Assembly: GCA_014800945.1 (NCBI GenBank) | Contig: JAAVFD010000038.1 | Location: 1 to 41,944 of the forward strand | DNA length: 41,944 bases | Direction of reading: 5' to 3' | From: Barnesiella sp. | GTDB lineage: Bacteria > Bacteroidota > Bacteroidia > Bacteroidales > Muribaculaceae | Shown here: in pieces, positions 6,905 through 41,017 of the stretch | Position numbering within the stretch: position 1 is the first letter of the stretch | Layout: every line of letters begins with the position of its first letter | Translations under genes and position numbers: made by a program | The notes under the pieces: generated by a model | Database searches by the model: none | What the model was told of the DNA's origin: nothing | What the model saw: the letters and a program-made list of their open reading frames with translations, nothing else

Positions 6905-7140
6905 AGTTCAACACCTCCGGCGTTGGGGGGGGGTTGGACGGGGCTCCGGTTCCGGGCACGTAAACGTACCCGGCTAACAAAATCAAAAGCCCTCCGGGCT
7001 TACAAATCAGACGCGCCGGCAGAGCGCGTCCCTCTCCGATTCCTCGGAATTTTCCGAATTCTCCGATTATTCCGACAATGGCGCCTTCCGGCGCACACCC
7101 CCCGCCACGGCATCGCCTCTACGAGGCTCAGAGGTGTCAA
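6905..7140. other. GC-rich cluster of short hairpins and a G9 run before polA
   Basis: The 425-bp gap 6781-7205 holds no convincing gene. After the terminator, at least five short inverted repeats follow one another: 6952-6973 (one mismatch), 6987-7001, 7010-7030 (perfect 7-bp stem), 7081-7094 and 7115-7127; a weaker one is at 7044-7057. A run of nine G is at 6925-6933, and CCGAWT-like words recur between 7036 and 7075. The cluster could be an RNA leader, a REP-like element or degenerate repeat sequence; I do not recognise the family. Confidence 0.6.
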
Positions 7141-13707: not shown

Positions 13708-15807
13708 ATGGATAAAAATACACTCACCGGAGTGCTCCTGATGGGAGCCGTCATACTCGGATTCATGTGGCTCAACCAGCCATCTAAAGAAGAAATCGAG
13801 CGACAGAGAGAACAAGCCGAAGAGCAGGCACGCCTTGCCCAGCAAGCAGCCGAAAATCAGCCAGTGCTGACAATTGACAGCGTAAGCGACCTCGAAAAAG
13901 CCCAGATTGCCTCAACAATTCAGCAACTCGGCACCCTTGACACCCTTACCGGCACTCGCACACTACAGATGCCGGACGCAACGCTCACACTGACCAAAGA
14001 CGGGATCACCGCCGGAACAGTCACCACACCGGCAGCTCAAGTACCCGTTGCCGACATTCTCGCCGCCTCATACGGCAACCTTAGTCCCGAAACAGCCAAA
14101 CAGGCAGTAAACACCCTGCGCCAGGCACTCGCCTCAGCCGCAAGATACAAAGGCTTCGCCAAATACCTCACCGGCACAGACACCACTGTTGAACTCAAAA
14201 ACAGCGACCTCACAATCGGAGTATCAACCCACGGAGGAGTAATTTCATCCGCAGTGCTAAACCACTATAACAGATACGACTCCACTGCGGTCAATCTGAT
14301 GGACAAAAACGTTGACTCATACAGCTTTACACTCCAGACACCCACACAGCGATTCCTCACATCCGAATTCTACTTCACCCCCACCGAGGTAAGCGACTCA
14401 ACAGTAACCATGCAGCTCAACCTCGGTGACGGAGCAACATGGGCGATACGCTACACACTCCCCTCACAAGGCTACACCGTGAAAATGGAGCTGCTCCAGA
14501 ACGGAATGCAAGCCATCATCCCACATAGCGCAGCAGAAATGGAATTCAACTGGCACCAGAAAATGGCAAGAAACGAAGCCGGGAAAGTATTTGAAGAAAG
14601 AAACTCCGCCCTCTACTACATGTTTGTCAACGGTGATGTTGAAAACCTCAAAGAAAACAGTTCACAGACAAAAGAAGTAAAAGAACGTATCAAATGGATC
14701 GGATATAAAAACCAATTCTTCACCGCACTCCTCGTTGCAGACCAAAACTTCACATCAGCCAACTTTGACAGCCAAGTGCTTGAGCACGACCTCGGATACC
14801 TCAAGCAGATGACCACCGACGCAACACTCGAATACTCATCCGCAAGCCCCACACCCGCATCATTCACATTCTTCTTCGGACCAAACTCCTACCCACTGCT
14901 CAGCGACCTCCAGGACGAAATCGCCCCGGGGCAGAACCTCCACCTCACAAACCTCATACCACTCGGATGGGCACTCTTCAGATGGATAAACACCCTCATT
15001 GTAATCCCCGTATTTGACCTCCTCGGAAAATACATCGCAAACTACGGCATCATAATACTCATCCTCACCATATTCATCAAAATAATACTCTTCCCCTTCA
15101 CCTACAAAAGCTACATGAGCCAGGCGAAAATGAGAGTACTCGCCCCCGAAATCAAAGAAATAAACGACAAATACCCGGGCAACGAAAATGCAATGAAACG
15201 CCAGCAGGAAACAATGGCGCTATACTCCCGGGCAGGAGCAAGCCCATTCTCAGGATGCCTACCAATGCTCCTACAGCTCCCGATACTCATTGCGATGTTC
15301 AACTTCTTCCCATCCGCAATAGAACTCCGCGGAGAGCCATTCCTCTGGGCAAAAGACCTCTCCGCACCGGATGCAATCATATCCTGGACAACAAACATAC
15401 CACTCATATCATCTACATTCGGCAACCACATCAGCCTCTTCTGCCTACTCATGACAGTTGTCAACATCATCTACACCAAGATAAACATGCAGAGCCAGCC
15501 CGGAGGCAACTCTATGCCCGGAATGAAATGGATGATGTACCTCATGCCGGTAATGTTCCTCGTATTCTTCAACAACTACGCGTCAGGACTCAGCTACTAC
15601 TACTTTCTGTCACTCCTCATCACCATACTACAGACCTACATCTTCCGCAAAGTAGTTGACGAAGAGAAAGTGCGCGCCACAATGAAAGAAAACGCACGCA
15701 AACCCAAAAAGAAAAGCGGATTCATGGCACGACTCGAAGAAGCCCAGCGCAAACAGCAGGCAATGCTCCGCGAGCAAGAAAAGCAGCGCGCCAAAAACCG
15801 CAGATAA
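13708..15807 (+). CDS. yidC: Membrane protein insertase YidC
   Basis: Inner-membrane insertase working alone or with SecYEG; 699 residues. It has an N-terminal membrane segment (about 4-20), a Q/A/E-rich linker, the large periplasmic beta domain typical of Gram-negative YidC (about 60-400), and the C-terminal 60KD_IMP domain with about five membrane segments (from ALFRWINTLIV) including SGCLPMLLQLPILIAMF. It ends in a Lys/Arg/Gln-rich tail that may contact ribosomes. The coding strand is strikingly rich in C and A and poor in T, as in the next two genes. Ferritin begins 19 bp later. Confidence 0.96.
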   Translation: MDKNTLTGVLLMGAVILGFMWLNQPSKEEIERQREQAEEQARLAQQAAENQPVLTIDSVSDLEKAQIASTIQQLGTLDTLTGTRTLQMPDATLTLTKDGITAGTVTTPAAQVPVADILAASYGNLSPETAKQAVNTLRQALASAARYKGFAKYLTGTDTTVELKNSDLTIGVSTHGGVISSAVLNHYNRYDSTAVNLMDKNVDSYSFTLQTPTQRFLTSEFYFTPTEVSDSTVTMQLNLGDGATWAIRYTLPSQGYTVKMELLQNGMQAIIPHSAAEMEFNWHQKMARNEAGKVFEERNSALYYMFVNGDVENLKENSSQTKEVKERIKWIGYKNQFFTALLVADQNFTSANFDSQVLEHDLGYLKQMTTDATLEYSSASPTPASFTFFFGPNSYPLLSDLQDEIAPGQNLHLTNLIPLGWALFRWINTLIVIPVFDLLGKYIANYGIIILILTIFIKIILFPFTYKSYMSQAKMRVLAPEIKEINDKYPGNENAMKRQQETMALYSRAGASPFSGCLPMLLQLPILIAMFNFFPSAIELRGEPFLWAKDLSAPDAIISWTTNIPLISSTFGNHISLFCLLMTVVNIIYTKINMQSQPGGNSMPGMKWMMYLMPVMFLVFFNNYASGLSYYYFLSLLITILQTYIFRKVVDEEKVRATMKENARKPKKKSGFMARLEEAQRKQQAMLREQEKQRAKNRR

Positions 15808-15826
15808 CATACTAAAAACAAAACCA

Positions 15827-16348
15827 ATGCTTAACAAAAAAATTCAAGACGCACTAAACGCCCAGATCAACGCCGAGTTCTGGTCAGCCTACCTCTACCT
15901 TGCAATGGCGCTCCACTTCAAAGCAGAAGGCAGAAGCGGAGTGGCAAACTGGTTTGAAATCCAATTCAAAGAAGAGCAGGCACACGCACAAATCTTCATG
16001 AACTACATCAACCAGCGCGGCGGAAAAGTAACCCTCGCCCCTATCGATGCAGTACCCTCAACATGGCCCAGCATACTCGACGCATTCAAAGCCACCCTTG
16101 AGCACGAACAGAAAGTCACCGCACTCATCAACAACCTTTTCTCACTCGCAGAACAGGAAAAAGACTACGCCACACGCGACCGCCTCATGTGGTTCGTGAG
16201 CGAGCAGGTAGAAGAAGAGGACAACTGCCGCACACTCATTGACAAATTCACCCTTGTTGGCGACAACGGAATGGGAATATACATGCTTGACAACGAGCTT
16301 GCTGCACGCACCTACACAGAGCCATCCCCACTCACAACAGCAGAATAA
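15827..16348 (+). CDS. ftnA: Non-haem ferritin
   Basis: Cytoplasmic iron-storage ferritin of 173 residues. The ferroxidase ligands fall at the same residue numbers as in E. coli FtnA: E17, E50, H53, E94, Q127 and E130. The four-helix bundle extends to about residue 155. It is 19 bp after yidC and could be cotranscribed with it; no separate promoter is evident. A strong terminator follows. Confidence 0.95.
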   Translation: MLNKKIQDALNAQINAEFWSAYLYLAMALHFKAEGRSGVANWFEIQFKEEQAHAQIFMNYINQRGGKVTLAPIDAVPSTWPSILDAFKATLEHEQKVTALINNLFSLAEQEKDYATRDRLMWFVSEQVEEEDNCRTLIDKFTLVGDNGMGIYMLDNELAARTYTEPSPLTTAE

Positions 16349-16370
16349 CCCAATAAATATCCACAACTAA

Positions 16371-16397
16371 GAGGCACCGGTTGGTGCCTCTTTTTTT
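16371..16397 (+). terminator. Intrinsic terminator after ferritin
   Basis: A perfect 8-bp stem GAGGCACC/GGTGCCTC (16371-16378, 16383-16390) with a GGTT loop is followed by seven T. It separates the pyrG-yidC-ftnA unit from the capsule operon. Confidence 0.93.
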
Positions 16398-16426
16398 CTA
16401 TCCCCTCAAAAAACACGCACACATAT

Positions 16427-16457
16427 TTGGAAAAATCAAACGCAAACCCTACTTTTG
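16427..16457 (+). promoter_or_regulatory. Capsule operon promoter upstream of upxY
   Basis: TTG (16427-16429), a 20-nt spacer and TACTTTTG (16450-16457) match the consensus well. The predicted leader before upxY is about 65 nt, room for an UpxY-responsive leader. I find no flanking inverted repeats of the kind that make Bacteroides capsule promoters invertible, and no invertase gene nearby. Small palindromes (GCCTAAGGC at 16503-16511 and CCCGGG just after) lie in the leader. Confidence 0.7.
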
Positions 16458-16528
16458 TGAAAATCATATAACCCACCCCGAGGAAAACGGCTACAAAGAC
16501 AAGCCTAAGGCACCCGGGACATAACCAC

Positions 16529-17167
16529 ATGGAAACCAAGAGCTCAACCGAGCCAACTATTCCACCAAACAGCGCAACTGCCTGGCAATCACCCGAAAAC
16601 ACCGCCAAGCAGGACTCAAACCATTACCTCTGCGACCAAACAGACCCATCACAATGGTTCGCCATGCGCGACCTCAAGCGACCCAACGCCAAAACCCACG
16701 CATGGCAGCTCCTCACCGACAAAGGCTTCACAGTCTTCACCCCCCTCAAATGGGTCACAGAAACAATAAAAGGCAAAAAGACACGCCGTCAGGTACCCTT
16801 CATCACCGACCTCCTCTTTGTCCGCTCCACTAAAGCCGACCTTGACCCACAGGTACAAGCGACGCCAACCCTCCAGTACCGCTACGCAAAAGGAGCACAG
16901 GCAAAACCAATCACTGTGAGAGACGACCACATGAACACCTTCGTCACCGCAGTGACAAACGCACCCGATACCAAATACTACCTCCCCGGCGAGCTCTCCC
17001 CAGCCATGATAGGACGCAGAATCCTCATAGTGGGAGGCCCCCTCGAAGGCTACACCGGCACCCTCCTCAGCATCAGAGGCACACGCACCCCACGCCTCCT
17101 CGTTGACCTCCCCGGCATACTAACCGCCGCCGTCGAAGTCTCCCCCGAATACATCCAACTCGCCTAA
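16529..17167 (+). CDS. upxY: UpxY-family transcription antiterminator (NusG paralogue)
   Basis: NusG-like factor that keeps RNA polymerase transcribing its own polysaccharide operon. The 212-residue protein has a variable N-terminus, an NGN domain starting WFAMRD (about 43-145) and a KOW-like C-terminal domain (RRILIVGGPLEGYTGTLL, about 160-205). Its position at the head of a capsule operon, not beside secE/rplK, argues for UpxY over housekeeping NusG. Base use resembles yidC and ferritin, not the AT-rich genes that follow, so the operon body may have been exchanged behind a resident regulator. No upxZ follows. Confidence 0.85.
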   Translation: METKSSTEPTIPPNSATAWQSPENTAKQDSNHYLCDQTDPSQWFAMRDLKRPNAKTHAWQLLTDKGFTVFTPLKWVTETIKGKKTRRQVPFITDLLFVRSTKADLDPQVQATPTLQYRYAKGAQAKPITVRDDHMNTFVTAVTNAPDTKYYLPGELSPAMIGRRILIVGGPLEGYTGTLLSIRGTRTPRLLVDLPGILTAAVEVSPEYIQLA

Positions 17168-17191
17168 TCCCAAAACTCTCCCCAACACCCT

Positions 17192-17205
17192 AATAATCGA
17201 TTATT
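17192..17205. repeat. 14-bp perfect palindrome at the composition border
   Basis: AATAATCGATTATT lies in the 44-bp gap between upxY and the first glycosyltransferase. It sits exactly where sequence changes from C/A-rich to AT-rich. It may be a protein site or chance in AT-rich DNA. Confidence 0.5.
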
Positions 17206-17211
17206 CTTGTT

Positions 17212-18135
17212 ATGCGTGCAATTCATGTTGGCATACTTGTGTCGTATGATTACAAATATCTCCCCACCTGTATTTCATGTATTTATGACTATGCAGATAA
17301 AATAACATTAGCCATTGATAAAAACAGACGAACATGGAATGGTGAGAAATATAAATTTGATGAATCGTTCTTGCAAACAGTTCTAGCTAAAGACTATGCA
17401 AATAAGATATCCGTATATGAAGATGATTTTGCGGTATCTGAACTCACAACAATGCAATGTGATTGTCATGAAAGACAGTTATTGTACGAGTTTATGGGAT
17501 CATCAGACTTAGATGCCTGGCATATTCAGTTGGATTCTGATGAATATTTCATAGACTTCAAAGGATTTGTTGATTTTCTTCATAAACTTGAAAAATCATA
17601 TACCGGTAAGATTACCGTAATGCCGAAATTGGTAACTATATTTCGGAAGGTGGAAGATGGAATTATTATAGCAGAAGATACAAATAGTGTATTTTTCCCA
17701 GTCGCATCCATTGGTGGATGCCGTTTCAATCCGTCTAAAGATGAAATTAAGCTAACAGTTCCGTTTATAGTTCTACATCAAAGTTGGGGTAGAGATGAAA
17801 CTGAAATCCAATTTAAAATTGAGAATTGGGGACATAATCGAGACTTTGACACTAATGCATATTTTGAGTTTTGGCGTAGTGTTAATAAGTATAATGCCCC
17901 TTATATATGTGATTGTCATCCATTAGGTAAAAAATCCGGGTGGAATAAACTGTTTTTCAAGCCCGGTAAGATTCAAGATATTATTCAAGACCTTCGACGT
18001 CAGAGCCCACCTATTAACTTTAAGCCTTCTATGATTAGAAGAGCAAAAAAAGATCGTCGTATAAATAGATTAAAGCAATCTTCCGTTGGACAAAGGATAA
18101 AACCGATTGTAAAATATGTCCTCCGTAAACGTTAA
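17212..18135 (+). CDS. Probable glycosyltransferase, GT2-like fold
   Basis: Probable cytoplasmic sugar transferase of the capsule operon, 307 residues. The N-terminal part resembles a nucleotide-sugar domain, with an acidic DSDEYF motif at 108-113 in place of the usual DxD. The long basic C-terminus (many K/R after 260) may touch the membrane. It is not a close match to any family I can name. The 3' end overlaps the flippase gene by 20 bp. Confidence 0.65.
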   Translation: MRAIHVGILVSYDYKYLPTCISCIYDYADKITLAIDKNRRTWNGEKYKFDESFLQTVLAKDYANKISVYEDDFAVSELTTMQCDCHERQLLYEFMGSSDLDAWHIQLDSDEYFIDFKGFVDFLHKLEKSYTGKITVMPKLVTIFRKVEDGIIIAEDTNSVFFPVASIGGCRFNPSKDEIKLTVPFIVLHQSWGRDETEIQFKIENWGHNRDFDTNAYFEFWRSVNKYNAPYICDCHPLGKKSGWNKLFFKPGKIQDIIQDLRRQSPPINFKPSMIRRAKKDRRINRLKQSSVGQRIKPIVKYVLRKR

Positions 18136-19627
18136 GCGGACAAGTTCGATTCTCTTCTTTCTCAGGATCGTCAAACTGTTAGTGTCACTTATAACAGTGT
18201 CACTAACAGCTAAATATTTTGGCGTTTCTGTAGAAAAAGATGCGTGGTTATTAGTAATAGCCCTCATATCCTCCATAACATTGCTGGTATGGGGTCCTAT
18301 AAATGAAACATTTAGAGCGAAATTTATATTCATAAAAGAACATGACGGGGAGATGATTGCATTGAAGAGTTCTTCATCCCTTCTATGTGGAATTATAATT
18401 ATCACACTTTTTCTTATCACTATACTTGCAGTATGTGCCCCATTAATAGCCAATTTCTCAGCACATGACCTTGGTAAAAGTGGAATTGAGTGGTTTCTTT
18501 CAATCTTTCTATTTCTATTACCTTCATTGCTCATTGATGAGCTCAACAATATCTCGGCAAGTATTCTTAATGCATATAATATTTTCTACATACCGGAAAT
18601 AGTTGGTTCAATAACCTCCGCCATATATATCGTTGTTTTACTGTGGCTTGCACCACTCATAGGAATATATTCTATTGTTGTAGGACAATATATCTCCACG
18701 ATTACCCTTTTATGTGTATTATTGGTATATATTAGACGACAACACATTTTTCAAATACGTTGGTTCTTGAAGCCATCATTTCAATTGGTTAAACCATTTC
18801 TATATTATGCTCTCCCATTCTTCTTCCCCTATGCCATCGGGCAGATCAATTATTTTACAGAAAGATGGCTTGCAACACTTTTAGGAGTTGGAAATCTTTC
18901 TATTCTGGACTATTCTAGACGTTTCACTGTGATTTTACAGACTGTTATTGGCAGTGTCTTAACAACCCTGATGGTACCTCTGCTTGCAAAATCCCACATG
19001 TCCGGGAAAACAAGCGACTTTAATCTGATTGTAAAACAGAATGTCACTGTAATTTATGGGATAATGTTATTGGCAATTCCTTTTTTATTTGGTGCGTCTT
19101 ACCCAATATGTGACTTTCTCTATCATCGTGGAGACGTAACAATGAAAGATATACAGGATATTACTCAGATTTGCCAATATTATGCATTAGCTTTCCTCGG
19201 AGTAATAATCTATATTATTTTTGGGAATATATTGTTAGCATCAGAAAAGGGGAAGATTTATGCATTTTGGGGGGTTATGGCACAATTAGTTGTAATTATA
19301 ATTAATTTCGGTTTTGTATCATACTCTGGTCTCGCAATTTTTCCCTGCTCGCTTGGACTGGTTCACCTTATTGTTGGCGGAATAATGTGGAGTAAAGGCA
19401 AATCATGGTCAACAGAACTACTGAAAATAATAATTCGTAATAATATTCTCATAATTACAGTATCATTTGGGATTTATCTTTTAAGTAAACATATATATCC
19501 CCTTGCTGCAATTCCTAACATACTTCTTTGTATAGCAACGACCTTGATAAGTGCTCTTTTATTGTCTCAATTTATCGGAATCAATTCATGGTCATTATTA
19601 AAGAAAGTGCTTCAGAAGGTGAAATAA
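18116..19627 (+). CDS. wzx: Polysaccharide flippase, Wzx/MurJ-like
   Basis: Inner-membrane lipid-linked oligosaccharide flippase of the MOP superfamily, 503 residues. About 12-14 hydrophobic segments cover the whole length. Sequence features resemble MurJ/MviN-like members (for example LDYSRRFTVILQTVIGSVLTT) more than classical Wzx, but the capsule context indicates repeat-unit export. It overlaps the upstream transferase by 20 bp and the downstream acyltransferase by 40 bp. Confidence 0.85.
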   Translation: MSSVNVKRTSSILFFLRIVKLLVSLITVSLTAKYFGVSVEKDAWLLVIALISSITLLVWGPINETFRAKFIFIKEHDGEMIALKSSSSLLCGIIIITLFLITILAVCAPLIANFSAHDLGKSGIEWFLSIFLFLLPSLLIDELNNISASILNAYNIFYIPEIVGSITSAIYIVVLLWLAPLIGIYSIVVGQYISTITLLCVLLVYIRRQHIFQIRWFLKPSFQLVKPFLYYALPFFFPYAIGQINYFTERWLATLLGVGNLSILDYSRRFTVILQTVIGSVLTTLMVPLLAKSHMSGKTSDFNLIVKQNVTVIYGIMLLAIPFLFGASYPICDFLYHRGDVTMKDIQDITQICQYYALAFLGVIIYIIFGNILLASEKGKIYAFWGVMAQLVVIIINFGFVSYSGLAIFPCSLGLVHLIVGGIMWSKGKSWSTELLKIIIRNNILIITVSFGIYLLSKHIYPLAAIPNILLCIATTLISALLLSQFIGINSWSLLKKVLQKVK

Positions 19628-20643
19628 CTTGGATAAAATGGCTCCGTGTAATAGCGTGTATCATGGTTGTATGCCTACATTCGCTTCCCGCAGGAGAATT
19701 ATCGACCGAATCACGTTATCTATATTATTGTGTAATTGCCGTAACTCGTCCATGTGTACCGTTATTCCTAATGATAACCGGTTTCCTCCTTTTAAGAAAA
19801 CAAAAAACAGAGATAGATGCAGAACTATTTTGGAAAAAACGTATTCCTCGTGTTCTATACCCTCTTTTGATATGGGGTGTCATCTATGCCGTTCTTGCTT
19901 ATGCATATAATAAAGCAGAGTTTAGTACGCTTATTTATACATTGGTTTTATTACCTGTCAGATACCCACAAGAAATAGGGGGTATTTTATGGTATCTATA
20001 CACCCTGATAGGTATTTATTTGTTTTTACCCTACTTATCACCTAAAACTTGGACTAATAGATACTATAGTTCTATTTTTATTGGAATATGGTGTATAGCC
20101 TCTTTTTTTACATTCCTTAGAGATTGGGATAGTACTTTACTTTGTGGTACCACTGCATACAATTATGATGTATTACTTAATTTTTCAGGTTTATTAGGCT
20201 ATTTAATTTTAGGATGCATTTTAGGAGAATCTAATATTCATATACCCTCCATACGATTGATTTTAATAAGTATCGCAGTATTTATTACGGGAATAGTTTT
20301 ATTCTTTTCCGGAATGTTAGTGAATCATACAGGTTTTATCATGACTGCTTACCATATGTCATTTTATAGTTTGCCAGCAATTCTCACTGCAGCGTCCATA
20401 TTCCTAATAATCAGCAAATTAAAATGGGGGGGGGGTAAAATTATATCCCTTTTATCAAAACTCAGTTTTCAAATTTACTTATGCCATATGGTGATTTATA
20501 CAGTGGCGACCAGATACCTATATTTATTGTCACAATCGCCGATAATTATAATATGTGTGATGTGTAGCACTTTCATTGGAGCAACTGGATTAGCTTGGCT
20601 TCTCAATAAAGCACCTTACCATAAATACATCACCGGAGCATAA
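19588..20643 (+). CDS. Membrane acyltransferase (acyltransferase 3 family) with in-frame G10 tract
   Basis: Multi-pass membrane O-acyltransferase, probably acetylating the polysaccharide; 351 residues from ATG 19588 (MVIIKESASEGEITW). About ten hydrophobic segments follow, and RVIACIMVVCLHSLP near the N-terminus holds the family's Arg and His. An earlier ATG in frame would lengthen the overlap with wzx, so I prefer 19588. The coding sequence contains ten G at 20426-20435, coding for W280 and the next three Gly. With ten G the frame is intact. With eleven, TAA follows immediately; with nine, TGA comes about 18 codons later. Either loses about the last 50-70 residues. Confidence 0.85.
   Translation: MVIIKESASEGEITWIKWLRVIACIMVVCLHSLPAGELSTESRYLYYCVIAVTRPCVPLFLMITGFLLLRKQKTEIDAELFWKKRIPRVLYPLLIWGVIYAVLAYAYNKAEFSTLIYTLVLLPVRYPQEIGGILWYLYTLIGIYLFLPYLSPKTWTNRYYSSIFIGIWCIASFFTFLRDWDSTLLCGTTAYNYDVLLNFSGLLGYLILGCILGESNIHIPSIRLILISIAVFITGIVLFFSGMLVNHTGFIMTAYHMSFYSLPAILTAASIFLIISKLKWGGGKIISLLSKLSFQIYLCHMVIYTVATRYLYLLSQSPIIIICVMCSTFIGATGLAWLLNKAPYHKYITGA
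20426..20435 (+). repeat. Homopolymeric G10 tract in the acyltransferase gene
   Basis: Ten consecutive G in an otherwise AT-rich gene. Such tracts change length by slipped-strand mispairing. The assembled length keeps the reading frame open (ON state). Confidence 0.9.
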
Positions 20644-21549: not shown

Positions 21550-22632
21550 ATGAAGAAAGCTTCTATCATCACCATACATGTCGGTTTTAATTTCGGATCT
21601 GTTTTGCAGACCGTTGCTACAGCCGTTGTTCTTCAAGAACTTGGATATATGCCTACGATAGTGAATTATATCCCGGATAGAGTGACATATCGAAGATATT
21701 TCAAAGAGGGGCTTAAGGATTTTAGAAAACTAATACGCCGTGTATTGTACTTTCCATTCCATTTAAAAAACGTAGCAGCTTACAATGGTTTTTTAGCTAC
21801 TCATACCAACCTCTCACAGCCTATTTACTCCGGGGATGATTTTGCGGCAAAATGCCCGGTTGCAGATGTATATATAACTGGTAGCGATCAGGTCTGGAAC
21901 AGCATACATAATGAGGGGTTTGACGGGCATTATTTCTATGATGGTATAGCTGGAGCAAATAAAATTGCATTTGCATCTTCAATAGGTAGAGAAAAAATTG
22001 ATGATGAAGAGCTTCATCTATTCAAGGAGAGACTCTCACAATATAAAGCAGTCTCCGTAAGAGAGAGTAGTGCAGTAAAAATTCTGAACTCGATTGGAAT
22101 AGATTCTACACTCGTTTTGGATCCTACGCTATTACTCGATAAAGATCAATGGCTCAAAATTGCCGGTGAACGAATTGAGAAAAGCCCATATCTCCTTATT
22201 TATACTCCATATAATATAGTTGACGAAGAACTGATATATCGCGCTGCGAGAAAAATGGCTAACGAACACGGACTCAAAATCGTTACATTCTCTTGGACTC
22301 ATCGAAAGAACAAATATGCGGATTACACATACCGGTATGCCCGACCGGAAGAGTTTCTTTCGTTGATGTATTATGCTGATTTTGTTATAACAAATTCTTT
22401 TCATGGCACAGCTTTCAGCATCAATCTAAATAAGCAATTTATTGTTTATCAACCATCTGCATTCTCTACACGAATACTGAGTCTGATAGAACTTGTCGGT
22501 CTTAGTAGCCGTTTGGTTCGTAATGATACCGATATAACCACATTGCCTGAGATAAATTATTCTCAGGTCAATAAACTCCTTGACGCAGAACGCGAAAAAA
22601 GCATAGATTTCTTAAGAAAAGCACTGGGCTGA
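21550..22632 (+). CDS. Polysaccharide pyruvyl transferase family protein
   Basis: Predicted to add ketal pyruvate to a sugar of the repeat unit, using phosphoenolpyruvate; 360 residues. The N-terminal HVGFNFGSVLQT, the central TGSDQVWNS and the later TNSFHGTAFSI are characteristic of PF04230. The stop overlaps the next gene's start by one base, so this protein is tightly coupled to the FrhB-like iron-sulfur protein, a pairing common in exopolysaccharide loci. Confidence 0.88.
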   Translation: MKKASIITIHVGFNFGSVLQTVATAVVLQELGYMPTIVNYIPDRVTYRRYFKEGLKDFRKLIRRVLYFPFHLKNVAAYNGFLATHTNLSQPIYSGDDFAAKCPVADVYITGSDQVWNSIHNEGFDGHYFYDGIAGANKIAFASSIGREKIDDEELHLFKERLSQYKAVSVRESSAVKILNSIGIDSTLVLDPTLLLDKDQWLKIAGERIEKSPYLLIYTPYNIVDEELIYRAARKMANEHGLKIVTFSWTHRKNKYADYTYRYARPEEFLSLMYYADFVITNSFHGTAFSINLNKQFIVYQPSAFSTRILSLIELVGLSSRLVRNDTDITTLPEINYSQVNKLLDAEREKSIDFLRKALG

Positions 22633-23825
22633 TGTATTTACTTACCGGAAATAAAGCAGAATGTTCGGGATGCACTGCTTGTCAGCAAATTTGTGGACAT
22701 GGCTCTATCACAATGCAGACCGATGAAGATGGATTTCTTTTCCCAGTCAAAGATTTGACTACCTGCGTTAATTGCGGCCTCTGTGAAAAGGTTTGCCCTT
22801 TTGATAAACCGAACTATAATAATACTCTCACCGATGCTTATGCGACTATGGCAAAGTCTTCGGAAGAAAGGATTAAGAGTTCAAGCGGAGGACTCTTTTA
22901 CCTTATAGCAAAAAAGGTTATTGAGCTGGGAGGAATTGTGTATGGTGCCATATTAGACGATAATATGAAAGTGCATCATGCTCATGCGGAATCACTTGCC
23001 GAATTAACTCCTTTGAGAGGGTCAAAATATGTGCAAAGTTCATTAAATGACACCTATCGTGAAATAAGGTCTCATCTTCGAGCTGGAAGATTGGTTTATT
23101 TCACCGGTGTTGGCTGTCAGGTCGCCGGCTTAAAATCTTTTTTGATTAAGAGTTATGATAATCTACTAACCTCGGATCTTGTTTGCCATGGGGTGCCTAA
23201 TCAAAAACTATTTGATGAGCATATTGCTTATTTGGAAAATAAGTACAAAGGTAAAGTTGTGGATTATAAATTCAGAGATAATAAAGGCTGGGGCGGTTGT
23301 GAAAAAGTTTATATTGAAAAGAAACCCGGTAAGATTAAAATTCATACTTTACCTACTTATGATCTGTCTCCATATCTATACTCCTTTATGTACTCGATGA
23401 CAATGCGTATATCTTGTTATAGTTGTCCTTTTGCAAAGATACCGCGTCAAGGGGATATTACTCTTGCCGATTATTGGGGAGCACAGGTCTATTTCCCTGA
23501 ATTAGACAATTCTAAAGGAGTTTCACTAATTACCATAAATACACCTAAAGGCAATGAAATAATCAAAAGCATCGAGAGTGAATTGATTATTGAAAAATCA
23601 AATATCGAGGATGCTTCACATTATAATGGCAATTTAGTCCACAATACTGAAATGCCACCTATCCGTTCCTCAATATTTGAATTGATTCGTAAAGATGGGT
23701 ATAACCGTATAGCCAAAACAATTTTCAGACCACCTTACTACAATAAACTTTTTGTCAAGACAAGACTCCGGCAGTTTATTGGGGACAAATCATATAAGAT
23801 CTTGAAAAAATTTCTCACAAGATGA
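22632..23825 (+). CDS. FrhB-like 4Fe-4S protein (F420 hydrogenase beta-subunit family) of polysaccharide locus
   Basis: A 397-residue protein with two N-terminal 4Fe-4S sites, C11/C14/C17/C21 and C45/C48/C51/C55, then the FrhB N and C domains (GGLFYLIAKK, FTGVGCQVAGL, DLVCHGVPN, SCYSCPFA, GDITLADYWG). The family normally moves electrons to or from a flavin. In capsule and EPS loci it accompanies pyruvyl transferases and its substrate is not established; a redox modification of a sugar is one possibility. Nothing suggests F420 metabolism here. It overlaps both neighbours (1 bp and 4 bp). Confidence 0.88.
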   Translation: MYLLTGNKAECSGCTACQQICGHGSITMQTDEDGFLFPVKDLTTCVNCGLCEKVCPFDKPNYNNTLTDAYATMAKSSEERIKSSSGGLFYLIAKKVIELGGIVYGAILDDNMKVHHAHAESLAELTPLRGSKYVQSSLNDTYREIRSHLRAGRLVYFTGVGCQVAGLKSFLIKSYDNLLTSDLVCHGVPNQKLFDEHIAYLENKYKGKVVDYKFRDNKGWGGCEKVYIEKKPGKIKIHTLPTYDLSPYLYSFMYSMTMRISCYSCPFAKIPRQGDITLADYWGAQVYFPELDNSKGVSLITINTPKGNEIIKSIESELIIEKSNIEDASHYNGNLVHNTEMPPIRSSIFELIRKDGYNRIAKTIFRPPYYNKLFVKTRLRQFIGDKSYKILKKFLTR

Positions 23826-24973
23826 AAACAGTAATGCTTGTTTTCGGAACTCGTCCGGAAGCTATTAAAATGGCTCCACTTGTAAAGGAGTTTCAGAAAC
23901 ACCCAGATAAATTCAAAACGATTGTTTGTGTAACAGGTCAGCACCGTCAGATGCTTGATCAAGTACTTGACATTTTTGATATTACGCCTGATTTCGACCT
24001 TAATATCATGAAGCAGGGGCAGGATCTATATGATGTAACGGCACGAGTGCTTATAGGCATGAGAGATGTCCTTACGGTATCTAAACCGGATATAGTCCTT
24101 GTACACGGTGATACCACCACCTCTACTGCGGCAGCTTTAGCAGCTTTCTATCAGCAGATTCCGGTAGGTCATGTTGAAGCAGGACTGCGTACGCATAATA
24201 TCTACTCGCCTTGGCCTGAAGAAATGAACCGTCAAATAACCGGTCGCATTGCAACATATAATTTCGCTCCGACACCTCTCAGTCGTGATAATCTTCTTGC
24301 TGAAGGTGTGAACGAAAAGAAAATAACTGTAACCGGGAACACTGTTATAGATGCCCTATATTGGGTCGTTAACCGTATAAATTCATCAGCCGAATTACAG
24401 AATTCACTTGCTGACGAACTCAAGAATGCAGGTTATGACACCGCACGACTTGCAACCGGCAAAAGAATGGTGCTTATTACCGGTCATAGGAGAGAAAACT
24501 TTGGAGAAGGCTTTATTTCGATGTGTAAGGCGATAAAGACCCTCACGGAGAAATATCCCGATGTTGATTTTGTCTATCCGATGCACCTTAATCCCAATGT
24601 GCGCAAACCAATTCATGAAGTATTCGGGGAAGACCTTTCAAATTTGGAGAATATGTTCTTTATAGAACCGCTCGAATACCTCTCATTTGTCTATTTAATG
24701 GAAAAGTCCACAATAGTATTGACCGATAGCGGTGGTATTCAGGAGGAAGCTCCGGGACTTGGTAAACCGGTACTCGTCATGCGAGATACTACCGAGCGCC
24801 CCGAAGCACTATCTGCCGGAACAGTTAAACTCGTTGGAACAGACTATAACAGAATCATTTCAGAAGTATCACGTCTTCTTGACGATACCGCATATTACGA
24901 ATCAATGAGTAAGGCAGTAAATCCCTACGGTGACGGACTTGCCTGCAAAAGAATTGTTGAAACACTAAAATGA
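23822..24973 (+). CDS. wecB: UDP-N-acetylglucosamine 2-epimerase (non-hydrolysing)
   Basis: Cytoplasmic epimerase interconverting UDP-GlcNAc and UDP-ManNAc; 383 residues, the usual length. It shows GTRPEAIKMAP (9-19), HGDTTTS, GHVEAGLRT, EEMNRQ and TDSGGIQEEAP, all typical. It is the only nucleotide-sugar enzyme in the operon. No WecC dehydrogenase follows, so ManNAc may be used directly, or the dehydrogenase is encoded elsewhere. ATGA overlap with the gene before. Confidence 0.95.
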   Translation: MKTVMLVFGTRPEAIKMAPLVKEFQKHPDKFKTIVCVTGQHRQMLDQVLDIFDITPDFDLNIMKQGQDLYDVTARVLIGMRDVLTVSKPDIVLVHGDTTTSTAAALAAFYQQIPVGHVEAGLRTHNIYSPWPEEMNRQITGRIATYNFAPTPLSRDNLLAEGVNEKKITVTGNTVIDALYWVVNRINSSAELQNSLADELKNAGYDTARLATGKRMVLITGHRRENFGEGFISMCKAIKTLTEKYPDVDFVYPMHLNPNVRKPIHEVFGEDLSNLENMFFIEPLEYLSFVYLMEKSTIVLTDSGGIQEEAPGLGKPVLVMRDTTERPEALSAGTVKLVGTDYNRIISEVSRLLDDTAYYESMSKAVNPYGDGLACKRIVETLK

Positions 24974-24974
24974 G

Positions 24975-26129
24975 ATGAAAAATAAAGTATTTTTGGTTAT
25001 TAAGGCAGAGATTACAACATATCCTCCGATACTTACAATTTTGCATCATTTACTGGAAATGAATCTAACCCCAGTTGTTGTTGGTGTATTTAATCAAATT
25101 GAAGTAAGAAAATACTATGAAAATAGAGGTATGGAATATATTCCAACAATCCAATATAATCCTAAATCCAATCTCATAGACAAACTTTATAAGCAAATTC
25201 AATACAAAAGAGAAGTTAAACAAATTTTAAAAAAACGTTATAAAGAAGGGGATTATGTTTGGATTTTTAATCTTGAAACGATGATGCTTCTTGACGACAT
25301 AGTCTCTAAGTATAAAACAATTCTACACTTTTTTGAATTTGTTGGCAAATCATTTAATTGGAAATACAGATTGTTAAATCCATTCTACTCTATGGAAGAT
25401 ACGTTAGCAAAATCCTATAGAGTAATTCATTGTGAATATAATAGAGCACAAATATCTATGGGATTGTATGGAATAAAACAATTACCATTAGTATTACCCA
25501 ATAAACCATTATTCCCAAAAGATATTTTCGAAAACATACCTGATTGGATTAAGGATAGGCTTGAAAAATTTGATCGAAAAACAGATGGTAAAAAAATTAT
25601 ACTATATCAAGGTGCTTTTACTGGAAAAGAGAGACGTCTTAATGAATTTTGCGAAGCTATAGATTATTTACCCAATGAATATGTTTTTGTCGCTATGGGT
25701 AAAGAGACGTCCTATTCAAAAGAATTACAGAAAGGGTACGCAAACCCAAATGTAATTTTTGAAGATTATCTTCCTGCACCTTACCATTTACTTATTACTC
25801 AAAAAGCAAATATCGGAATATTGACATATTTCCCACTTTCAAAGAATTTTGTTGATGTCATAAATCCTATTTATTGTGCTCCAAATAAAATATTTGAATA
25901 TTCTTATTTCGGAATTCCCATGATTGGAAATAACATTCCAGGGTTAAAGTATCCCTTTAAAGAGTATCAATGTGGTGAGGTTGTTCCAATTCCTTTAAGC
26001 GCTCAACAAATAGCCTCTGCGATTATAACCATTAATAATGATTATAGTCAATACTCCGTTGGGGCAAAAAAATTATATGAATCGGTGGATATTTACTCAC
26101 TTATGAAGTCCATTTTTAATGCACAATAA
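24975..26129 (+). CDS. Glycosyltransferase, GT-B fold
   Basis: Probable retaining glycosyltransferase of 384 residues. The C-terminal half has the GT4-like plan: ILYQGAFTGKERRLNEFCEAI, then VIFEDYLP, NIGILTY and NKIFEYSYFGIPMIGN, where the NKIFEY element likely binds the donor nucleotide. The N-terminal half is divergent. Very AT-rich with poly-A runs. It starts 1 bp after the wecB stop. Confidence 0.8.
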   Translation: MKNKVFLVIKAEITTYPPILTILHHLLEMNLTPVVVGVFNQIEVRKYYENRGMEYIPTIQYNPKSNLIDKLYKQIQYKREVKQILKKRYKEGDYVWIFNLETMMLLDDIVSKYKTILHFFEFVGKSFNWKYRLLNPFYSMEDTLAKSYRVIHCEYNRAQISMGLYGIKQLPLVLPNKPLFPKDIFENIPDWIKDRLEKFDRKTDGKKIILYQGAFTGKERRLNEFCEAIDYLPNEYVFVAMGKETSYSKELQKGYANPNVIFEDYLPAPYHLLITQKANIGILTYFPLSKNFVDVINPIYCAPNKIFEYSYFGIPMIGNNIPGLKYPFKEYQCGEVVPIPLSAQQIASAIITINNDYSQYSVGAKKLYESVDIYSLMKSIFNAQ

Positions 26130-26159
26130 ATAGATGATATAGCTGAAAAAATATGGCAA

Positions 26160-27353
26160 ATGAATACATCAAATAGCTATATCCCGTTCCACATTTATTT
26201 GTTTATTTTTGGTGCATTCTACTACTGGATACTTCCTTTAGTAATTTTGAAATGCAATTTACTAGAGGGAATGCCTGGTGTACAGTTGCTTGATGAGTAT
26301 AATTTTCAGCACGTTGAAAGTATATATCTTCTTATTATTTTTTTGTTGGTTATTTCTTTTATCATTGGATCGGTATTACCTCTAAGGTTTAGAAAAATTA
26401 AACCCGTAAATAAAGTAAGTACAACACTTATCAGTCCACGCGATATCTTTTTACTGTCCCTACCTTTTTTTATTTATGGCCAATATATTGTGTTTAATGC
26501 CAGAGGATTCTTATTCAAAGGCTACACTGCCGCTCATGGTGAAGATACAATGGGACCAATAGCTACAATAAATACTATATTCCTAGTTTTATATTTATAT
26601 TTGAAATATATTAAATCAGATAATATTTGGAGAAAAAGAGCTATACAGTTATGTAAATTATCCTTGATTGAGTTCTCTGTTGTGTTATTAGGCCTTGGTT
26701 CCAGAATGTATGTTTTGATTCCAATTATTGCTTTAATGGTATCTTACTTACGTTATAATAAGCTGAACAGCAGATTGATCTTTACAGTTTTAATAGTTGC
26801 TTTTATATTCCTAACTATTGGAATATGGAGAATATCTTCTGAAGGCATGAACTGGACATTGTTGCTATATATAGGAGGTGCAGAACCATTGTTTACATGG
26901 ATTAGTGCTATTTCCTATTTTCTAAGTAATGATATTCAAATGTTTGCTTTCCCACAAAATTTCATTACCTCATTTTTTAACTTCATTCCAAGATTTCTGT
27001 TCCCTTCAAAAGGTTTATACATTCAACCTATTAATGGCAATTATGATTCTCCTCTAGGTGCTACAAACTTAATAACATCCTTACTTGCTGATTTTGGTTT
27101 AATAGGAGCCTGTTTAGCTTTATTTCTATTAGGTTTTATTCTAACACATATACTGTATAATTGGAGAAATATATATGGGCAAGTATATTATTGTTGTGTG
27201 TGTGGAATTCTACCTTTCCAATTTTTCAGAGATGCCATTCCGATTGTTAACAAAATGGCACTATTTAATATGCTGATAATTCCACTTTTTCTTTTCGTTT
27301 TTATCAGAATAACAATAAAATATAATACCCGTGAAAAATCTACTATTAGATAA
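26160..27353 (+). CDS. wzy: O-antigen/capsule repeat-unit polymerase, Wzy-like
   Basis: Inner-membrane polymerase that joins lipid-linked repeat units at the periplasmic face; 397 residues with about ten to twelve membrane segments. GLGSRMYVLIPI and the late loop DSPLGATNLITSLLADFG followed by FFRDAIP fit the Wzy pattern of some Gram-negative oligosaccharide polymerases. The family is poorly conserved, so the call rests on topology, these motifs and the position next to transferases and a flippase. It overlaps the next gene by 23 bp. Confidence 0.8.
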   Translation: MNTSNSYIPFHIYLFIFGAFYYWILPLVILKCNLLEGMPGVQLLDEYNFQHVESIYLLIIFLLVISFIIGSVLPLRFRKIKPVNKVSTTLISPRDIFLLSLPFFIYGQYIVFNARGFLFKGYTAAHGEDTMGPIATINTIFLVLYLYLKYIKSDNIWRKRAIQLCKLSLIEFSVVLLGLGSRMYVLIPIIALMVSYLRYNKLNSRLIFTVLIVAFIFLTIGIWRISSEGMNWTLLLYIGGAEPLFTWISAISYFLSNDIQMFAFPQNFITSFFNFIPRFLFPSKGLYIQPINGNYDSPLGATNLITSLLADFGLIGACLALFLLGFILTHILYNWRNIYGQVYYCCVCGILPFQFFRDAIPIVNKMALFNMLIIPLFLFVFIRITIKYNTREKSTIR

Positions 27354-28380
27354 TATTATATTTTCATTGCAGCGAGCTGGGGGAATATCCGTAGTATGGG
27401 CTAATCTCATAAACAATATTACTCAACATGGCATAGATTTCAAGTGCATTGAATATGGCGCGTCTAAAAATATATATCAAGATAAATTGAATATATCAGA
27501 TGACAGAATTATTAATTCAAGTAACAAAGCATTAGATTTTCGGAGATATTTCAGCCCAACCATCAAGATTAATTCACCAACTATCTTCCATTCTTCATAT
27601 TACCGAACTATAAACTCCCCTCTGGTAAAAAATATTACTACTGTTCATGATTTTACCTATGAATATTTCAATCATGGACCGAGAGCTTGGATTCATAAAT
27701 GGCAAAAGTTTAACGCAATCAGAAATTCTGAAAGGATAGTATGTGTAAGTAATCATACAAAATCTGACCTTTTGAAATTTTTCCCTGAAGTTTCTTCTGA
27801 TAAAATATCGGTAATTTATAATGGGGTTTCAAACTCTTATAAGAAACTATCTTCGCCCCCATACTCAGAGTATTCTGATTGCCTTTTATTCATAGGAGCT
27901 CGTGAGGGATACAAAAACTTTGATTTTGCAATAGAGGCATCTAAATCTACAAAACATCGACTCATAGTTTGTGGTAACCCATTAAATGATATTGAGAAAA
28001 AAAAACTTATTACTAATTTAGGTGAATCCGGATTTATTTCATTTAATCGTCCGACCAATGAACTACTTAATAAGCTTTATAACTCCGTTTTTGCCCTTAT
28101 TTACCCATCATCATACGAAGGCTTTGGGATACCCGTTATAGAGGCACAAAAGGCCGGATGTCCTGTCGTTTCTCTAAATGCCTCATCTATACCAGAAATA
28201 ATAGGAGAGGATTATCCCATGCTTAATAATCTAACAATTAATGAGGTCATATCATTAGATAAGACATTAAGAATACCTAATTTCAGGGATAATATCATAA
28301 ATCATGGCATTGAAAATTCCAAAAGATTTTCTTGGAAAAAAATGGGGGAACAATATATTGATATTTATAAATCCTTATAG
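27331..28380 (+). CDS. Glycosyltransferase family 4, GTG start
   Basis: Retaining GT-B transferase of 349 residues. The donor site has the EX7E pattern in SSYEGFGIPVIEAQKAG (E263, E271), preceded by VSNHTKSDL and VIYNGV. It begins with GTG inside the end of wzy. A run of nine A at 27997-28005 codes for lysines; a length change there would break the frame, though A runs are common in this AT-rich DNA. Confidence 0.88.
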   Translation: MKNLLLDNIIFSLQRAGGISVVWANLINNITQHGIDFKCIEYGASKNIYQDKLNISDDRIINSSNKALDFRRYFSPTIKINSPTIFHSSYYRTINSPLVKNITTVHDFTYEYFNHGPRAWIHKWQKFNAIRNSERIVCVSNHTKSDLLKFFPEVSSDKISVIYNGVSNSYKKLSSPPYSEYSDCLLFIGAREGYKNFDFAIEASKSTKHRLIVCGNPLNDIEKKKLITNLGESGFISFNRPTNELLNKLYNSVFALIYPSSYEGFGIPVIEAQKAGCPVVSLNASSIPEIIGEDYPMLNNLTINEVISLDKTLRIPNFRDNIINHGIENSKRFSWKKMGEQYIDIYKSL

Positions 28381-29147
28381 TGATAATTTCTATAATCACA
28401 GCAACTTACAATAGTGCAAACACTATTCGAGACACGTTTGAGAGCGTGCTGTCTCAAACATACAACAATATTGAATATATCGTTATTGATGGTGCTTCAA
28501 CAGACGGAACTATTGACATCATAAAGGAATACGAGCCCAGGTTCCAAGGGCGTTTAAAATGGATAAGTGAGCCTGATAACGGCCTTTACGATGCAATGAA
28601 TAAAGGCATAGAAATGGCAACCGGAGAGATTGTTGGAATTCTTAATTCCGATGATTTTTTTTCATCAACTGATATTCTTAAAATAGTAGCTACTAATATA
28701 ATTGATGTTGATGCTGTTTATGGTGATATTCACTATGTTAACTCGGATAATTTGAATAAATCGGTAAGAAAATATAGTTCAAAAAGTTTCCGACGTTGGA
28801 AAATGATTATGGGCTTTATGCCTGCACATCCTTCATTTTATTGCCATAGAAGAATCTATCAACAATATGGGCTTTTTGATACAACTTTCAAAGTAGCAGC
28901 TGATTTTGAACAGTTATTACGTTTGATTTACATCAATAATATATCAATACGCTATATTCCGGTAGATTTTGTTACAATGCGAACCGGTGGTGCATCGTCC
29001 TCCGGCATTTCAAGTCATAAAAAGATTATTAAAGATCATCTTAAGGCTTATAAAAAGAATAATATAAAATCAAACATACTGTTTGAAAGTTGCAGATATT
29101 TATATCGCATAGGTCAACTAATTAAATTTAAGTTGACACGAAGCTAA
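28380..29147 (+). CDS. Glycosyltransferase family 2, GTG start
   Basis: GT-A transferase of 255 residues, resembling WcaA-like capsule transferases. It begins ISIITATYNSANTI, with IDGASTDGT near 36-44, EPDNGLYDAMNKG near 64-76 and the metal-binding NSDD at 89-92. The GTG start overlaps the TAG of the gene before it by one base, a coupled arrangement. A T8 run occurs at NSDDFF. It is the last gene of the capsule operon. Confidence 0.9.
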   Translation: MIISIITATYNSANTIRDTFESVLSQTYNNIEYIVIDGASTDGTIDIIKEYEPRFQGRLKWISEPDNGLYDAMNKGIEMATGEIVGILNSDDFFSSTDILKIVATNIIDVDAVYGDIHYVNSDNLNKSVRKYSSKSFRRWKMIMGFMPAHPSFYCHRRIYQQYGLFDTTFKVAADFEQLLRLIYINNISIRYIPVDFVTMRTGGASSSGISSHKKIIKDHLKAYKKNNIKSNILFESCRYLYRIGQLIKFKLTRS

Positions 29148-30413: not shown

Positions 30414-31157
30414 TTAATGGTTTGACACTGAGGATAACTCCGCGAGCAGCTGCGGCATCTGCTCTGCCAGCGCGGGCATATCGGGGAATACTATCGCCGC
30501 TCCGGCTTCTTCAAGAGCGTTGCCAGACAATGGTCCGGTGGTCACTCCAATGGTGAAGGCTGCTGCCGCATCTCCCGCCTCTACTCCTAAGGGAGCGTTT
30601 TCAATCACAATGCTTTGCCACGGGCTCACAGCCGCTTTTTTCATCGCGGCAAGGTATGGCTCGGGGGCGGGCTTCCCTTTCACCACATCGCGGCCTGTAA
30701 TCCTCATATCGGGTGCGAAGGCTCCGGGAAAATCGGCGTCAAGCCGGTTTATCAGCGAGCTCTGCCCCGATCCGGTGACAAGCACGCGCTTCAAGCCGGC
30801 TGCTTCGAGTTCGCGCATCATCTTCTGAGCACCTGGCATGGGGCTTACATCGGGCAATTCGGTGAAATACACCGTTTTGCGGTGGTACAGGTCCTTGATT
30901 TCCTCATCGGTGGCATCTCTGCCAAACTCTCTGTTAAACAACAGGTTGATAGTTGATGCTCCGGTGCGCCCTTCGTATAGAAAAAACTCTTCCAAGGTGG
31001 CATGAATACCTATCTCGCTCACCATCCGCATCCACGCCTGGGCGTGACGCGGCATGGAGTCATACAAAGTGCCGTCCATATCTATCAGGGCGGCGCGCGG
31101 CTCAATCACCTTATAGCTATGTCGCTTCAAAAATCGCTCTATCTGCTGCTCAAACAT
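30414..31157 (-). CDS. HAD-superfamily hydrolase, beta-phosphoglucomutase-like
   Basis: Cytoplasmic HAD phosphatase or phosphomutase, 247 residues. The nucleophile motif is DMDGTLYDS (D26, D28), motif II VTGSGQSS, then the Lys in KGKPAPEPY and the acidic motif ENAPLGVEAG. A helical cap lies between motifs I and II, as in the PGMB/Gph subfamily. The substrate is unknown. Its ATG overlaps the stop of the AsmA-like gene by one base. Confidence 0.88.
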   Translation of the reverse strand: MFEQQIERFLKRHSYKVIEPRAALIDMDGTLYDSMPRHAQAWMRMVSEIGIHATLEEFFLYEGRTGASTINLLFNREFGRDATDEEIKDLYHRKTVYFTELPDVSPMPGAQKMMRELEAAGLKRVLVTGSGQSSLINRLDADFPGAFAPDMRITGRDVVKGKPAPEPYLAAMKKAAVSPWQSIVIENAPLGVEAGDAAAAFTIGVTTGPLSGNALEEAGAAIVFPDMPALAEQMPQLLAELSSVSNH

Positions 31158-40134: not shown

Positions 40135-41017
40135 CCGCTACATCTGGCTTATCGATACTATCCGCCGCTACGGCTGCATTACGCGTGAAGAACTTAATGT
40201 GTTGTGGAAAAAGACTGATTTTTCCAATGGTGAACCGTTGCCACGCAGAACGTTCTATAATTACCGCAATGCTATAGAGGAGCTGTTCAAAATCAGCATC
40301 GAGTGCAATCCGGCAACGTTTGAGTACTATATTGACAATGGCGACGAGCACAGCGAGAGTGTTACCGACTGGCTGCTTAATGCTGCATCAATGAGCAATG
40401 TTCTCACCGATGCGCGTGAGGTTAGTCACAAAGTTTTTCTGGAGGATGTGCCCTCGAGCCGGTTCTATCTGGAGTCCGTGCTTAGCGCCCTGAAGGAACA
40501 GCGCACCCTGGTGTTTACCTACTGCCCGTTTTCACGGTCAAATCCTACGCGCGATGTAGTTATCGAGCCTTACTTCATCAAACTTTTCAAGCAGCGCTGG
40601 TATGTAATCGGGCGCAACGTCAAGGAGGATAGCATAAAAACCTACTCACTTGACCGAATGAGTGATGCGGTAGTGGGATCCGACAGCTTCGAGGTGCCGG
40701 AGTGGTTTGATGCCGAGGAGTATTTCAGCGACACTTTCGGCATTGTTTATTCACGCGGCGAACCCAAGCAGGTTGCAATACGCACCGATTCCCGTCAGGC
40801 TAAATATTTCCGCGCATTGCCGCTTCACAGCAGCCAGAAGGAGATGGTTCACGATGACTATTCCATATTCACATATAAGCTTAAACTCACTCAGGATTTT
40901 GTTCAGGAGCTGCTTAGCCACGGGCCGCACATCACAGTTATTTCTCCGCCGGAGCTCCGCGCAATGATGGTGACCAGTCTGGAGGAGAGCATTAGAAATT
41001 ATAAAGGAGACAATTAG
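40115..41017 (+). CDS. WYL-domain transcriptional regulator
   Basis: Cytoplasmic DNA-binding regulator of 300 residues. The N-terminal ~90 residues are a winged-helix-like region ([27 protein letters not shown]). The WYL domain (about 125-215) holds [10 protein letters not shown] and IKTYSLDRM, followed by a WCX-like C-terminal domain. It overlaps the symporter by 20 bp, and trmD follows after 4 bp. It may control this operon in response to a ligand, which is inference from position. Confidence 0.88.

What the first reader, a model, noticed from the sequence alone, without database searches (positions are those of the whole stretch)
20426..20435. G10 tract predicts phase-variable capsule acylation
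Ten G lie inside the acyltransferase 3 gene of the capsule operon, in AT-rich surroundings. With ten G the frame is intact. With eleven, TAA follows at once; with nine, TGA follows about 18 codons on; either removes the last 50-70 of 351 residues. Slippage in such tracts is an established phase-variation mechanism in Neisseria, Haemophilus and Campylobacter. Bacteroidales are better known for invertible promoters, so a slippage switch on a capsule-modifying enzyme would add a second layer of surface variation.
Basis: partly seen in the sequence, partly recalled or inferred. Interest (0 to 1): 0.78.

Follow-up and report, generated by a model that had tools for sequence, protein, structure and literature searches.

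The report
Poly-G switch in capsule acyltransferase gene
A run of ten Gs inside a surface-polysaccharide gene of a gut-type bacterium looks like a slip-prone on/off switch, and it belongs to a large set of such G-run switches on surface genes across its bacterial family, whose order is best known for switching genes by flipping DNA.

Summary
Chance is unlikely: exact G-run counts in this genome fall from 108 (length 6) to 9 and 5, then rise to 12 (length 9), 4 and 2. The two orthologues found keep a G9 at the site at 79% and 49% protein identity, with other residues. A second acyltransferase-3 gene here is broken at a G8, and its G006 relative is open with G9. A SusC-type gene is broken at G10 and open at G9 in a relative. 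Two overlapping contigs differ over 3.3 kb by five substitutions and one indel, which lies in a G run. The larger finding is a poly-G set across Muribaculaceae: G runs ahead of a Bacteroidetes -7 box (TAnnTTTG) in 246 of 397 genomes and 26 of 30 genera; in fetched sites the spacer is most often 18-19 bases. Switching was not measured, and no OFF allele of this gene was seen. The mechanism is known elsewhere; nine literature searches gave no report in Bacteroidales.

The parts
20426..20435 (+). G10 tract, in frame (reads W G G G, residues 280-283)
   Evidence: same-site G9 in L010 and L011
19588..20643 (+). acyltransferase-3 (PF01757) gene, 351 aa; well kept H31, W135, Y297 and H300, the last two downstream of the tract
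18116..19627 (+). MurJ-type flippase gene, overlaps the start of the acyltransferase; a similar ORF precedes the orthologue in G025 and G031
   Evidence: ORFs in L010, L011
20648..21544 (+). family 2 glycosyltransferase ORF, begins 4 bases after the acyltransferase stop (first start codon TTG)
16529..17167 (+). NusG-like first gene of the polysaccharide operon (resembles UpxY of Bacteroides; that label is recalled)
16426..16457 (+). ordinary -33/-7 type promoter match (TTTG, 20 bases, TACTTTTG) ahead of the operon, without a G tract
   Evidence: no inverted repeats of 13 bp or more in 15750-17300
21550..29147 (+). rest of the polysaccharide operon (pyruvyl transferase, FrhB-like, UDP-GlcNAc 2-epimerase, glycosyltransferases; 26160-27353 has no Pfam match)

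Best explanation
The G10 is a contingency (phase-variation) tract. Slippage during replication adds or removes a G. With 10 G (or 7, 13) the surface-polysaccharide acyltransferase is made whole (ON). The other lengths tried (8, 9, 11, 12) end it at 282-302 residues, without the native Y297/H300 motif and the last hydrophobic segments, so the polysaccharide would be left unacylated (OFF). Cells would thus differ at random, and reversibly, in acylation of this polysaccharide. The same genome carries G tracts of 8-11 in or ahead of other surface genes. Shown: tract, frame, conservation as DNA in three orthologues, excess over expectation, open and broken relatives at same-site tracts of other genes, length differences between near-identical copies. 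Inferred: slippage as the cause, loss of activity on truncation, acyl transfer to the capsule, reversibility and rate.
For: Excess of runs at 9-11 with deficit at 6-8. Same-site G9 in both orthologues, 79% and 49% identity, read as VGGGK and RGGV instead of WGGGK; GGG is 12% of Gly codons in 27 window ORFs and 16% within the operon. AT3 genes of the genus: 7 G/C runs of 9 or more in 106 AT3 ORFs (114.5 kb) against 0.66 expected at the genus density (441 runs in 76.5 Mb); by locus and tract position these are 5 lineages (no tree built); Poisson 6e-6 for 7, 6e-4 for 5. Own second AT3 gene (G000:C20) is split into two PF01757 pieces in different frames at a G8; its two pieces are 65% and 59% identical to an open G006 gene with G9 there. 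SusC-type gene: own G10 out of frame, G9 in G025, G029 and an own paralogue, open in G025 and the paralogue where the frame was read. In 7 of 7 clusters of fetched tracts with conserved flanks the length differs. C9 and C17 overlap over 3281 bp at 99.3%; leaving out N they differ by five substitutions and one indel, 2 bases in a G tract. Truncation removes H300, present in 91% of 105 aligned AT3 sequences.
Against: No reads were available, so tract length in the population is unknown. All three alleles of this gene are in frame; no OFF allele of it was seen. Only three orthologues were found. Genomes are one per species and mostly many-contig assemblies; homopolymer errors could cause some length differences, and some runs sit at contig ends and look like artefacts. 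In the own/G006 AT3 pair the stretch just after the run also differs in length, so that pair does not differ by run length alone. Distant AT3 relatives lack the run. The reversed-pattern controls were not empty: 2 placements, 25 in 22 genomes. A truncated AT3 might keep some activity.
Confidence: 0.85

Rival explanations
1. The run is a by-product: a glycine-rich loop that happens to use GGG codons, or a mutational ratchet, without selection for switching.
For: All three alleles of this gene are in frame; the run lies between two hydropathy peaks, residues 257-275 and 285-303; GGG is somewhat commoner in this operon (16% of Gly codons).
Against: Residues change while the run stays; runs of 6-8 are fewer than expected and only 9-11 are in excess; in this genome 12 of 23 runs of 8 or more go with receptor, AT3 or DUF3575 genes, while 1.39 Mb around yidC in 80 relatives holds only 2 runs of 9 or more.
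Confidence: 0.08
2. Assembly or sequencing artefact: the true length differs, or length differences between copies are errors.
For: Own contig C9 carries many N near its tract; some runs lie near contig ends; mononucleotide tracts are a problem for sequencers (PMC4235727, passage).
Against: With 10 G the frame is open over 351 codons; a run is present at the same site in G025 and G031; the promoter arrangement recurs in 246 of 397 genomes. The existence of the run does not depend on its exact length.
Confidence: 0.03
3. Transcriptional or ribosomal slippage on the run makes a fixed mixture of full and short protein from one DNA length (programmed, not heritable).
For: Long homopolymers can provoke RNA polymerase slippage (recalled); would also explain conservation of the run.
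Against: Does not explain DNA length differences between relatives and between C9 and C17, nor the tracts placed ahead of promoter boxes.
Confidence: 0.04

Closest known systems
Poly-G contingency loci in reading frames (Neisseria hmbR/hpuAB: start of abstract of PMC3786947 seen in the listing; Campylobacter surface-glycan genes: recalled)
   Same: Mononucleotide G tract in a surface gene, open at one length in three; several such loci per genome; receptor, glycan and restriction-modification genes affected.
   Different: Host is a gut Bacteroidales (Muribaculaceae); enzyme is an AT3 in a NusG/flippase polysaccharide operon; switching not measured here.
Poly-G promoter tract of Neisseria meningitidis porA (PMC3639595, abstract read)
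   Same: G tract of 9-11 in the promoter of an outer-membrane protein gene; length sets expression there.
   Different: Here the tract most often ends 18-19 bases before a Bacteroidetes -7 box (TAnnTTTG), about where the -33 element would lie, with TTAA(C) elements upstream; several genes per genome.
Invertible promoters of Bacteroides capsule and SusC/D loci (passages of PMC12632263)
   Same: Same kinds of gene made variable: capsule and SusC-type receptors.
   Different: DNA inversion by an invertase; no inverted repeats of 13 bp or more found at the start of this operon.
Bacteroides fragilis 638R acetyltransferase frameshift (PMC3090145, passages read)
   Same: Acetyltransferase-related gene of a polysaccharide locus disrupted by one extra C; authors suggest slippage could vary the polysaccharide.
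   Different: Run of only 4 C; no set of long tracts and no conservation of the run in the passages read.

Membership tests
Acyl_transf_3 (PF01757) | match over the curated score across the domain | tested here: met
   136.4 bits, cut-off 31, profile 2-325 of 326
Acyl_transf_3 (PF01757) | residues well kept among the genus AT3 sequences | tested here: met
   H31, W135, Y297, H300 kept, 83-98% in 105 aligned sequences
Poly-G phase-variable contingency locus | mononucleotide tract longer than chance allows | tested here: met
Poly-G phase-variable contingency locus | tract length sets the reading frame | tested here: met
   in silico
Poly-G phase-variable contingency locus | tract conserved as DNA across relatives | tested here: met
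   3 of 3 orthologues (own included) found in 397 family genomes at E 1e-45
Poly-G phase-variable contingency locus | ON and OFF lengths found for this gene | tested here: inconclusive
   10, 9 and 9 G, all in frame; open and broken copies only for other genes
Poly-G phase-variable contingency locus | frequent, reversible switching in culture with a change of phenotype | not testable with these tools
   needs reads and strains
Bacteroidales invertible promoter locus | inverted repeats flanking the promoter | tested here: not met
   no inverted pair of 13 bp or more in 15750-17300

The most novel reading that the evidence does not exclude
Muribaculaceae run a slippage-based phasome. A distinct promoter type (TTAAC, a few bases, TTAA, then G8-11, then mostly 18-19 bases, then TAnnTTTG) puts SusC/TonB receptors and other exported proteins under poly-G length control, and G tracts inside capsule acyltransferases, SusC signal regions, a type I specificity subunit and a TupA-like ATP-grasp gene switch those genes. 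It replaces or complements the recombinase inversions of Bacteroides.
Probability: 0.75. Interest if true: 0.85.

Novelty: new variant of a known kind. Interest (0 to 1): 0.74.

Why it matters
In the passages I read of two 2025 reviews, phase variation of Bacteroides is described as DNA inversion. If G tracts also gate receptors and capsule acylation in Muribaculaceae, then nutrient uptake, immune recognition and phage sensitivity could vary cell by cell in this gut family by a mechanism that inversion screens would not detect. Tract length can be counted in existing reads, so the idea can be tested at once.

Tried and rejected
Looked for an invertible promoter at the operon start: no inverted pair of 13 bp or more. 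Looked for P0001 relatives in named genome contigs: 39 pattern stretches, none confirmed. Looked for more orthologues in 397 family genomes at E 1e-45: only the three already known. Searched solved structures for P0001: 0 matches up to E 0.01, so truncation was judged by kept residues and hydropathy only; I ran no structure prediction. The closest yidC relative by identity (L231, 91%) gives no P0001 match in the DNA held. I considered that the second window run (G9 at 6925) is a promoter switch of polA: no TAnnTTTG close behind it seen by eye, so not claimed. Literature searches whose listings showed no report of G-tract phase variation in Bacteroidales: 20 of 54 papers listed; held open-access library only.

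Full report
1. The observation. The run of ten G is at 20426-20435, inside an ORF that from its ATG at 19588 codes 351 residues and matches PF01757 over nearly the whole domain. The gene lies between a MurJ-type flippase and a glycosyltransferase in an operon that starts with a NusG-like gene and goes on with a pyruvyl transferase, UDP-GlcNAc 2-epimerase and glycosyltransferases. The operon has an ordinary TTTG-N20-TACTTTTG promoter match and no inverted repeat of 13 bp or more around its start.

2. Chance. In the 2.34 Mb genome (38 contigs, 82% complete) exact G-run lengths on both strands are 108 (6), 9 (7), 5 (8), 12 (9), 4 (10), 2 (11). A first-order model with the window's parameters expects 369, 84, 19, 4.3, 1.0 and 0.2. 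Short runs are fewer and runs of 9-11 more than expected. One locus may be counted twice (C9 and C17). All 34 genomes searched in the genus hold runs of 9 or more, 441 in 76.5 Mb (sum); some of these sit at contig ends and look like artefacts (for example G025:C44). In 1.39 Mb around yidC in 80 named relatives there are 2.

3. This gene in relatives. Among 34 genus genomes and then 397 family genomes the close orthologues are in G025 (79% identity) and G031 (49%). Both keep a G9 at the same site. The coded residues differ, WGGGK, VGGGK and RGGV, so the run is kept as DNA rather than for its residues. GGG makes up 12% of Gly codons in 27 window ORFs and 16% in the operon. All three are in frame; I saw no OFF allele of this gene. 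The five more distant rows (28-32% identity) have no run of 7 or more inside the gene.

4. Other AT3 genes. A PF01757 search of the 34 genomes gave matches in 32. I fetched every listed row but two weak ones (G027:C11:33875 and G008:C18:18194), as L070-L179, 110 loci. A profile built here found 106 distinct AT3 ORFs, 114.5 kb, with 7 runs of 9 or more G or C inside, against 0.66 expected from the genus density. Five are G and two are C on the coding strand. By locus and tract position they make 5 lineages; I built no tree. In the own genome a second AT3 gene on C20 is broken: PF01757 matches 2-107 and 123-323 lie in different frames on either side of a G8. A G006 gene, 65% and 59% identical to the two pieces, has G9 there and an open frame; the stretch just after the run also differs in length between them.

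5. Other own tracts. Of 23 own runs of 8 or more, 9 go with TonB-dependent or SusC-type receptors by Pfam (7 upstream, 2 inside; L021 is a weak match and L023 matches only the carboxypeptidase-like domains), 2 with AT3, 1 with a DUF3575 protein. The rest go with proteins of other or no Pfam family or were not assigned; L020 and L027 were not scanned, being close to each other and related to L031. Six of the seven upstream tracts run in the gene's direction, L021 against it. One SusC-type gene has signal peptide and body in different frames meeting at a G10; in G025 the same site is G9 and open, and an own paralogue with G9 is open. G029 has G9 at the site. G033 has tracts in a type I specificity subunit (Methylase_S), a TupA-like ATP-grasp gene and AT3 genes.

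6. Length differences. Clustering the fetched tracts by conserved flanks gave 7 clusters of 2-4 members; in 7 of 7 at least two lengths occur, between 9 and 11. Own contigs C9 and C17 overlap at their ends over 3281 bp at 99.3%; leaving out N, they differ by five substitutions and one indel, which is 2 bases in the G tract (9 against 11). These may be two strain versions of one locus or a recent copy; C9 has many N there.

7. Promoter form. In the genus, G8 + 14-24 bases + TANNTTTGC gave 90 placements in 25 of 34 genomes, against 2 for the reversed pattern (sum; a run of 9 counts more than once). With the run anchored (HG8, 15-24, TANNTTTG) 246 of 397 family genomes in 26 of 30 genera match. 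In the 34 genus genomes of that table there are 88 matches in 29 genomes (sum) against 1 reversed; over the whole family I counted by eye 25 reversed matches in 22 genomes and did not sum the forward ones. Among 47 distinct fetched sites 24 have a spacer of 18 or 19, and 38 of 39 with spacers of 14-24 have a TTAAC/GTTAA/TTTAA element within 35 bases upstream. Many of these sites were fetched by the promoter pattern itself, so the range is partly set by the search; and AT-rich sequence makes the element common, with no control run. The tract thus sits about where a -33 element would lie. That length changes promoter strength is inferred by analogy with porA (PMC3639595, abstract).

8. Mechanism. 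Slippage changes the run, and the frame decides between 351 aa and a product without the native Y297 and H300. These are among the better kept residues here (83% and 91% of 105 sequences). No solved relative was found by sequence. Loss of function on truncation, the acyl group and the acceptor are inferred.

9. What is known. The -7 consensus TANNTTTGY for Bacteroides is in PMC12632263 (passages), where 'slippage' and 'homopolymer' do not occur in the main text. In the 12 of 14 passages shown of PMC11868660, switching genes of Bacteroides are tied to invertases, and the authors ask for reversibility and high rate before the term phase variation is used; I cannot meet that standard with sequences alone. 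PMC4235727 (passages) names Bacteroides among bacteria with contingency loci, without a mechanism in that sentence. PMC3090145 (passages) discusses slippage as a possibility for a B. fragilis polysaccharide locus. The listings of nine searches showed no report of G-tract phase variation in Bacteroidales; the library holds open-access papers only. The family name is inferred from this.

10. Verdict. Observation confirmed, interpretation supported by comparison but not by measurement, and the context makes it larger: a new variant (family, promoter form, gene set) of a known kind (poly-G contingency loci).

Noticed in passing
window 6925-6933: A second long run, G9, in the gap between a GH31-type gene and polA, without a promoter box close behind it by eye; may be another variable tract or part of an intergenic repeat.
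   Followed up: partly
L019 (G000:C8, about 30729-30738): SusC-type receptor gene with signal peptide and body in different frames at a G10; G9 and open in G025 (L065) and in own paralogue L034; G029 (L069) also has G9.
   Followed up: yes
L173 (G000:C20, about 41001-41008): Second acyltransferase-3 gene broken at a G8; relative in G006 (L146) open with G9.
   Followed up: yes
L227 (G033:C18, about 34979): Type I restriction specificity gene (Methylase_S) with an internal G9: a possible phase-variable methylation system.
   Followed up: partly
L230 (G033:C32, about 1200): TupA-like ATP-grasp gene that ends just after a G9 at its 3' end, with another frame open beyond it.
   Followed up: no
L341 and L342 (G000:C9 and C17): Contig ends overlap by 3.3 kb at 99.3% with one indel, in the G tract upstream of a protein whose relative (L031) has no Pfam match; C9 carries many N there.
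   Followed up: yes
L210 (G025:C44:1-130): Contig end made of broken long G runs (12, 11, 15) just before a receptor-like gene, perhaps an assembly artefact at a tract.
   Followed up: no
L098 (position 2401) and L170 (position 553): AT3 genes with a C9 or G8 run at or just before their start, not counted among the 7 internal runs of 9 or more.
   Followed up: no
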